From positions 62,001-126,000 of the forward strand of contig JAJYSJ010000001.1 in NCBI GenBank assembly GCA_021793645.1: a DNA stretch of 64,000 bases. Reading direction: 5' to 3'. Each line of letters begins with the position of its first letter. The stretch's first letter is position 1. Origin of the DNA: Bacillota bacterium. Its GTDB lineage: Bacteria; Bacillota; Sulfobacillia; JAJZYS01; JAJYTV01. Made by a program: the position numbers and the translations under genes. Of the stretch, positions 45,116-45,736 are shown in pieces. A model generated the notes under the pieces. It did no database searches. It saw nothing but the letters and a program-made list of their open reading frames with translations, and was not told the DNA's origin.

Positions 45116-45736
45116 ATGCCGCTGAAGATTGAGACCTTCTCGGACTACGTCTGACCGTTTTGCTACATCGGCGAGGGGCTCGTCGACAAGCTGAACGAAG
45201 AGCCGGACATCCAGCTGGACGTCACCTGGGCGCCGTTCGAGCTGCATGCCGAAACGCCCGAGGCCGGTCTGCCGCTCGCGCAGTACTTTGATGTGCCAGA
45301 GGAACGCGTTGCCTCGATGCAGCAAGGCCTGCAGGAGCGCGCGGAGTCGCTCGGCCTACGCTTCCAGGCGCCAAAGGTACTCTCGAACACCCGCAAGGCG
45401 CACATCATGTCCGAGTATGCGCGGGACGAGGGCAAGCTGGATGCGCTCCGCCGCGCAACGTTCCGCGCGAACTTTGCCGAGGGGCGCAATCTTGCCGACG
45501 ATGGTGTCCTCCGGGACCTTGCGGCGGAGGCGGGATTGGATCCGGACACAGCCCTCGCGGCGATCTCGGATCCACGCTATGTGCAGCGCGTCGACGCCGC
45601 GGCGCAGCGCTCGCGCGCCCTCGGCATCACCGGGGTGCCAGCCTTCATCATCGAGGACAAATACAAGATCGTCGGGGCGCACCCATTGGATGTGCTGCGC
45701 GACGCCTTCCGGCGCATTGCCGATGAGCAGCGCTGA
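45116..45736 (+). CDS. FrnE/DsbA-family thiol oxidoreductase with in-frame TGA (45152-45154) at the first Cys of CxxC; candidate selenoprotein
   Basis: MPLKIETFSDYV[TGA]PFCYIGEGLVDKL...GITGVPAFIIEDKYKIVGAHPLDVL; continuous frame from ATG 45116 through the listed ORF 45293..45736. Confidence 0.75.
45168..45186 (+). promoter_or_regulatory. bSECIS-like hairpin downstream of the TGA codon
   Basis: TCGGCGAG-GGG-CTCGTCGA; 8-bp stem with one G-U; G-rich apical loop 21 nt after the TGA. Confidence 0.5.

What the first reader, a model, noticed from the sequence alone, without database searches (positions are those of the whole stretch)
45116..45736. Candidate selenoprotein: FrnE/DsbA-like oxidoreductase with UGA at the catalytic CxxC (UPFC)
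Seen: ATG at 45116 opens MPLKIETFSDYV, then TGA (45152-45154), then PFCYIGEGLVDKL... in the same frame to 45736. The family normally reads SDYVCPFCYIG, so the TGA falls exactly on the first catalytic cysteine. A hairpin TCGGCGAG-GGG-CTCGTCGA begins 13 nt after the TGA, with its apical G-loop 21 nt after it. That is within the spacing described for bacterial SECIS elements. The downstream coding sequence is intact for 194 codons, which argues against old decay. ORF callers split it and would annotate only 45293..45736. A Cys-to-stop mutation or sequencing error remains possible.
Basis: partly seen in the sequence, partly recalled or inferred. Interest (0 to 1): 0.9.

Follow-up and report, generated by a model that had tools for sequence, protein, structure and literature searches.

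The report
Selenocysteine-containing FrnE/DsbA-type redox enzyme
The UGA codon at 45152-45154 is almost certainly read as selenocysteine, not as a stop, giving a full-length FrnE/DsbA-like redox enzyme that gene callers cut short; the same UGA and the RNA hairpin behind it are kept in 14 related genomes, so this is a real but previously known kind of selenoprotein.

Summary
ATG 45116, TGA 45152-45154, 193 further codons and stop 45734-45736 form one frame encoding an FrnE/DsbA-family protein (PF01323, 1e-38) with UPFC in place of CPFC. The nonsense-mutation and sequencing-error readings fail. In a read-through search of 154 genomes of the class, 15 of the 20 genomes with a strong homologue (own included) have TGA at this codon; 5 have TGC/TGT. 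The assembly holds tRNA-Sec(TCA), SelA, SelB and SelD, and SelD itself has an in-frame UGA (UGCK). The hairpin (8 bp, GGG triloop, loop 21 nt after the UGA) meets the published bacterial SECIS model. Its pairing is kept in the 15 UGA genes, with two compensatory pair changes in one, and broken in all five Cys genes. A same-genus pair (L118 Sec, L116 Cys) encodes the same peptide while the Cys gene has lost the hairpin by CTC/CTG and GTC/GTG differences. SelD of this genome carries a hairpin of the same geometry with another sequence. DsbA-like UxxC selenoproteins (PF01323/COG2761) have been described since 2005, so this is a new member of a known kind. Selenium incorporation and enzyme activity remain inferred.

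The parts
45116..45736 (+). selenoprotein gene, FrnE/DsbA-like thiol(selenol)-disulfide oxidoreductase, 206 aa with Sec13
   Evidence: PF01323 DSBA 1e-38; closest solved structures D. radiodurans FrnE; AF2 model pLDDT 92.7
45152..45154 (+). UGA codon read as selenocysteine (Sec13 of the U-P-F-C motif)
   Evidence: TGA at this codon in 15 of 20 class homologues, TGC/TGT in the other 5
45161..45163 (+). resolving Cys16 of the U-P-F-C motif (TGC)
   Evidence: invariant in the protein alignment
45168..45186 (+). bacterial SECIS element: 8-bp stem TCGGCGAG/CTCGTCGA with GGG triloop, loop 21 nt after the UGA
   Evidence: 97.5% of cells paired in 15 UGA genes, two compensatory pairs, broken in 5 Cys genes; fold -10.4 kcal/mol for the hairpin alone, -13.0 with near flank
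45293..45736 (+). truncated ORF that a standard caller reports (database copy is 139 aa, which fits ATG 45317)
45723..46382 (+). alpha/beta hydrolase gene, overlaps the 3' end of the selenoprotein gene by 14 nt, likely same operon
   Evidence: PF12146/PF12697; a homologue lies near the gene in L105, L106, L111, L115

Best explanation
The gene encodes a cytoplasmic FrnE/DsbA-family oxidoreductase whose N-terminal catalytic cysteine is selenocysteine. SelB carrying Sec-tRNA-Sec binds the 8-bp GGG-loop hairpin just behind the UGA and inserts Sec at residue 13, so translation runs to 45736. In the product, Sec13 is the nucleophile that attacks disulfides (or other oxidised substrates) and Cys16 resolves the mixed selenosulfide; a cellular reductant then regenerates the enzyme. 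Shown by sequence comparison: the frame, the conserved UGA, the conserved hairpin, the complete Sec machinery. Inferred: actual Sec insertion, the direction of catalysis, the substrate and the reductant.
For: Own genome: tRNA-Sec at 69.3 bits with TCA anticodon, SelA 535 bits, SelB 306 bits, SelD 350 bits with in-frame TGA as UGCK. 15 of 20 class genomes with a strong homologue have TGA at this codon, own included, with protein identity to the window down to 39%. The part after the TGA is under purifying selection: dN 0.22-0.39 against dS 0.86-1.98 for the nine closest relatives. Database relatives such as P0003, P0006, P0007, P0013 begin only after the UGA. Hairpin paired in 97.5% of cells, two pairs with changes on both sides, 2 of 500 shuffles as high, slid controls 27-60% paired. 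Third positions in the stem (GGC 15/15, CTC in all 14 Leu, GTC 15/15) are fixed while the Gly codon in the loop uses all four third letters. Same-genus Sec and Cys genes L118 and L116 differ over UGA and stem only by TGA/TGC and by synonymous changes that break the stem. SelD of the same genome has an 8-bp stem with GGA triloop at 20 nt. The FrnE fold matches at TM 0.91; Sec13 sits directly before helix 14-28.
Against: No protein-level data. Protein sequence alone gives the 7-bp core of this stem in 7.6% of synonymous resamplings, so in a single gene the hairpin would be weak evidence. G041 has TGA and SelB but no SelA or clear tRNA-Sec was found (84% complete); G051 has TGA, SelB and tRNA-Sec but no SelA hit; in G118 only a GCA-anticodon selC-like tRNA was found. 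Incomplete assemblies are the simplest reason. L105 and L107 lose the top pair and L109 one inner pair of the hairpin.
Confidence: 0.95

Rival explanations
1. Nonsense mutation or sequencing error in an ordinary Cys-type frnE gene.
For: One base separates TGA from TGC; five class relatives have TGC/TGT.
Against: The same TGA stands in 14 other genomes of several families, with a conserved hairpin that the Cys genes lack.
Confidence: 0.01
2. UGA is read through as another amino acid (for instance Cys or Trp by a suppressor or selC-like tRNA-Cys), not as Sec.
For: selC-like tRNAs with Cys anticodon GCA exist in another family of this class, and some selC* tRNA-Cys with UCA anticodon are reported (PMC7609411).
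Against: The own genome has a canonical tRNA-Sec(TCA) with SelA, SelB and SelD; UGA is an ordinary stop elsewhere, including at the end of this gene; the hairpin geometry equals that of the SelD UGA.
Confidence: 0.03
3. Only the shorter protein from 45293 or 45317 is made and the upstream part is a relic.
For: It is what databases list (P0002).
Against: It would lack the first strand and the catalytic helix. There is no in-frame start between the TGA and 45293, and the stretch before GTG 45293 has no purine-rich ribosome site. The N-terminal part before the TGA is conserved in all relatives.
Confidence: 0.01

Closest known systems
DsbA-like selenoproteins, form 1 (PF01323 / COG2761, UxxC), Sargasso Sea 2005 and later (PMC1088965, PMC1794560, PMC2398784, PMC13188914)
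   Same: Same Pfam family, same UxxC motif with Sec in the N-terminal catalytic position, SECIS just downstream of the UGA.
   Different: Found here in an unnamed bacterial class and family; the published sequences were not held, so their identity to this protein could not be measured.
FrnE of Deinococcus radiodurans (DR_0659; PDB 5CNW, 5CP1, 5XWH)
   Same: Closest solved structure by sequence (4e-27) and fold (TM 0.91, 31% identity); proposed cytoplasmic disulfide reductase with CP(W/F)C site (PMC8945050).
   Different: DR_0659 uses Cys and has a C-terminal CXXXXC thought to regenerate the active site; this protein has Sec and no such tail.
SelD selenoprotein of the same genome (L020)
   Same: UGA followed by 8-bp stem and GGN triloop at 20-21 nt.
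   Different: Unrelated protein and stem sequence.

Membership tests
DsbA-like UxxC selenoprotein (PF01323) | PF01323 domain above the curated cut-off | tested here: met
   133.5 bits against cut-off 25.6
DsbA-like UxxC selenoprotein (PF01323) | in-frame UGA aligned to the N-terminal catalytic Cys, with UGA also in relatives (Cys/Sec pairs) | tested here: met
   15 TGA and 5 TGC/TGT at the same column
DsbA-like UxxC selenoprotein (PF01323) | Sec actually present in the protein | not testable with these tools
   needs 75Se labelling or mass spectrometry
Bacterial SECIS (model in PMC13188914 Fig. 2) | 3-9 nt apical loop, 4-16 bp upper stem | tested here: met
   3-nt loop, 8 bp
Bacterial SECIS (model in PMC13188914 Fig. 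2) | G in the first two loop positions | tested here: met
   GGG; GG at loop positions 1-2 in all 15 UGA genes
Bacterial SECIS (model in PMC13188914 Fig. 2) | 16-37 nt between UGA and loop | tested here: met
   21 nt
Bacterial SECIS (model in PMC13188914 Fig. 2) | MFE at or below -7.5 kcal/mol | tested here: met
   -10.4 for the hairpin alone, -13.0 with near flank
Sec-decoding organism | selA, selB, selC, selD present | tested here: met
FrnE subfamily | FrnE-like DsbA fold, CP(W/F)C-type site | tested here: met
   UPFC; TM 0.91 to D. radiodurans FrnE
FrnE subfamily | C-terminal CXXXXC (present in many, not all, members) | tested here: not met
   the only Cys after Sec13 is Cys16; S. roseofulvus and D. 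maricopensis FrnE lack it too (PMC8945050), so it does not define membership

The most novel reading that the evidence does not exclude
In this lineage SelB may recognise a rigid, lineage-specific SECIS shape, an 8-bp stem closed by a GGN triloop 20-21 nt behind the UGA, shared by the unrelated SelD and FrnE genes. The family would then record Sec/Cys switches that can be read from synonymous sites alone. The number of SECIS genes examined in the genome (two) is too small to show this.
Probability: 0.3. Interest if true: 0.45.

Novelty: new member of a known kind. Interest (0 to 1): 0.4.

Why it matters
Standard gene callers miss it, and databases hold it and several close relatives only as truncated proteins that lack the active site. 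It extends DsbA-like selenoproteins to a bacterial class where the family can be followed between Sec and Cys at nucleotide resolution: a same-genus pair shows the SECIS present with UGA and absent with UGC, through synonymous differences. It also suggests a SECIS geometry that can be used to find further selenoproteins in these genomes.

Tried and rejected
Sequencing error and nonsense mutation: rejected, TGA conserved in 15 genomes. Internal restart: rejected, no plausible start or ribosome site and loss of the catalytic helix. The genome-contig scan returned homologues at 38% identity or less, from Bacillales, Microvirga and others; it leaves out near records of the window's genome and was not used on Sec against Cys. 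NCBIfam has no model above cut-off for this protein. Naming the organism: the best named SelA hit is a Bacillota MAG at 54% identity, too distant to place it. A tree of the 20 proteins needs 3-4 Sec/Cys changes, but label clustering is no better than shuffled, so direction and number of switches stay open apart from the supported L116/L118 sister pair.

Full report
OBSERVATION. The sequence is as described. ATG 45116 opens MPLKIETFSDYV, TGA follows at 45152-45154, and PFCYIGEGLVDKL... continues in frame for 193 codons to the stop at 45734-45736. The hairpin is TCGGCGAG-GGG-CTCGTCGA at 45168-45186, its loop 21 nt behind the TGA. Read with a residue at the TGA, the product matches PF01323 (DSBA) over residues 5-198 with 133.5 bits.

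THE STOP IS CONSERVED. A search that reads stops through, in 154 genomes of the class, gave 20 genomes with a match at E <= 1e-25. Fifteen, own included, have one TGA inside, always at the first catalytic position of the (U/C)P(F/Y)C motif; five have TGC or TGT there. Identity to the window's protein among the TGA genes falls to 39%. An error or a fresh mutation cannot give this. Codons behind the SECIS region show dN 0.22-0.39 against dS 0.86-1.98 for the nine closest relatives, L105-L113, so the part behind the TGA is under selection as protein. Several database relatives (P0003, P0006, P0007, P0013) start only behind the UGA and so look truncated, and the window's own entry is 139 aa long.

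THE MACHINERY IS THERE. The window's genome (3.40 Mb, 94 contigs, 96% complete) has tRNA-Sec with anticodon TCA, SelB, SelA and SelD. SelD carries its own in-frame TGA as UGCK, the known Sec position of SelD (UxxK in PMC13188914). This is an internal positive control: the genome very probably decodes UGA as Sec in at least one other gene. G133, with no SelA hit, no SelB above cut-off and no true tRNA-Sec (its Rfam hit is tRNA-Ser by ARAGORN), has the Cys form. The reverse does not hold: G129 and G134 have the machinery and still use Cys.

THE HAIRPIN. It meets the four constraints of the published bacterial SECIS model quoted in PMC13188914. In the 15 TGA genes 97.5% of pair cells are standard; two pairs show changes on both sides, both in L121 (GGCAAT-GGC-ATTGTC). 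Only 2 of 500 shuffles reach the observed covariation, and slid partners pair in 27-60% of cells. In all five Cys genes the stem is broken. The codon table is telling: third positions in the stem are fixed (GGC 15/15, CTC in all 14 Leu, GTC 15/15) although elsewhere in these genes CTC is 33% of Leu and GTC 40% of Val codons, while the Gly codon in the loop uses GGG, GGA, GGT and GGC. L118 (Sec) and L116 (Cys) are sister proteins of one genus (support 100/99). Over the stem they encode the same peptide, but the Cys gene reads CTG GTG where the Sec gene reads CTC GTC. For one gene alone the stem is not strong evidence: 7.6% of synonymous resamplings contain its 7-bp core. The force comes from the comparison. 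The sequences are related, so the 15 genes are not 15 independent events.

A SHARED SHAPE. The SelD gene of the same genome carries GGTCCAGC-GGA-GCTGGATC, an 8-bp stem with a GGA triloop 20 nt behind its UGA. The stem sequence is unrelated to that of the frnE gene. A shape scan based on these features finds exactly one site in the 64-kb window, this one.

WHAT THE PROTEIN IS. The AlphaFold2 model (pLDDT 92.7, pTM 0.89) matches FrnE of Deinococcus radiodurans at TM 0.91, and the sequence search agrees. Sec13 lies directly before helix 14-28, the usual place of the nucleophile in thioredoxin folds. Cys16 is the only other redox residue. The sequence opens directly with the first strand and shows no obvious signal peptide (read from the sequence; no predictor was run), which fits the predicted cytoplasmic place of FrnE proteins (PMC8945050). 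D. radiodurans FrnE has been proposed to be a cytoplasmic disulfide reductase (PMC8945050). By analogy the likely reaction here is selenol attack of Sec13 on a disulfide and resolution by Cys16; the C-terminal CXXXXC of D. radiodurans FrnE is absent, so an external thiol system would regenerate it. This part is inference. An alpha/beta hydrolase gene overlaps the 3' end by 14 nt (45723-46382), and a homologue lies near the gene in L105, L106, L111 and L115.

NOVELTY. DsbA-like selenoproteins with UxxC were reported from the Sargasso Sea as COG2761 (PMC1088965), then in isolated bacteria (PMC1794560) and the Global Ocean Sampling data (PMC2398784), and are listed as PF01323 'DsbA-like protein form 1' in the 2026 review (PMC13188914). 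The finding is a new member of that kind.

CAVEATS. Three TGA genomes show gaps in the machinery: G051 lacks a SelA hit, G041 lacks SelA and a clear tRNA-Sec, and G118 shows only a selC-like tRNA with GCA anticodon. Missing contigs are the simplest reason for G041 (84% complete); G051 is rated 99% complete, so there the absence is less easily dismissed. Sec insertion has not been measured.

Noticed in passing
L129 1503-1593, L140 1503-1591, L146 1503-1593, L147 1497-1591 (genomes G118, G115, G119, G116, family f37 of the class): tRNAs that pass the Rfam tRNA-Sec cut-off (55-60 bits) but carry the Cys anticodon GCA; G115, G116 and G119 also have a normal tRNA-Sec(TCA). They resemble the known selC* tRNA-Cys (PMC7609411).
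   Followed up: partly
L020 1405-2436 (-), codon at residue 14: SelD of the window's genome is itself a selenoprotein gene (UGCK) with an 8-bp, GGA-triloop SECIS-like hairpin; SelA lies directly beside it.
   Followed up: yes
G051 (L112): A 99% complete genome with UGA-type frnE, SelB and tRNA-Sec but no SelA hit; assembly gap or another route to Sec-tRNA.
   Followed up: no
window 42525-45050 (+): Large fusion of a GNAT acetyltransferase domain with an NDP-forming acyl-CoA ligase (CoA-binding and Succ_CoA_lig), just upstream of the selenoprotein gene; a histone-deacetylase-family gene lies divergently upstream (41303-42559, -).
   Followed up: no
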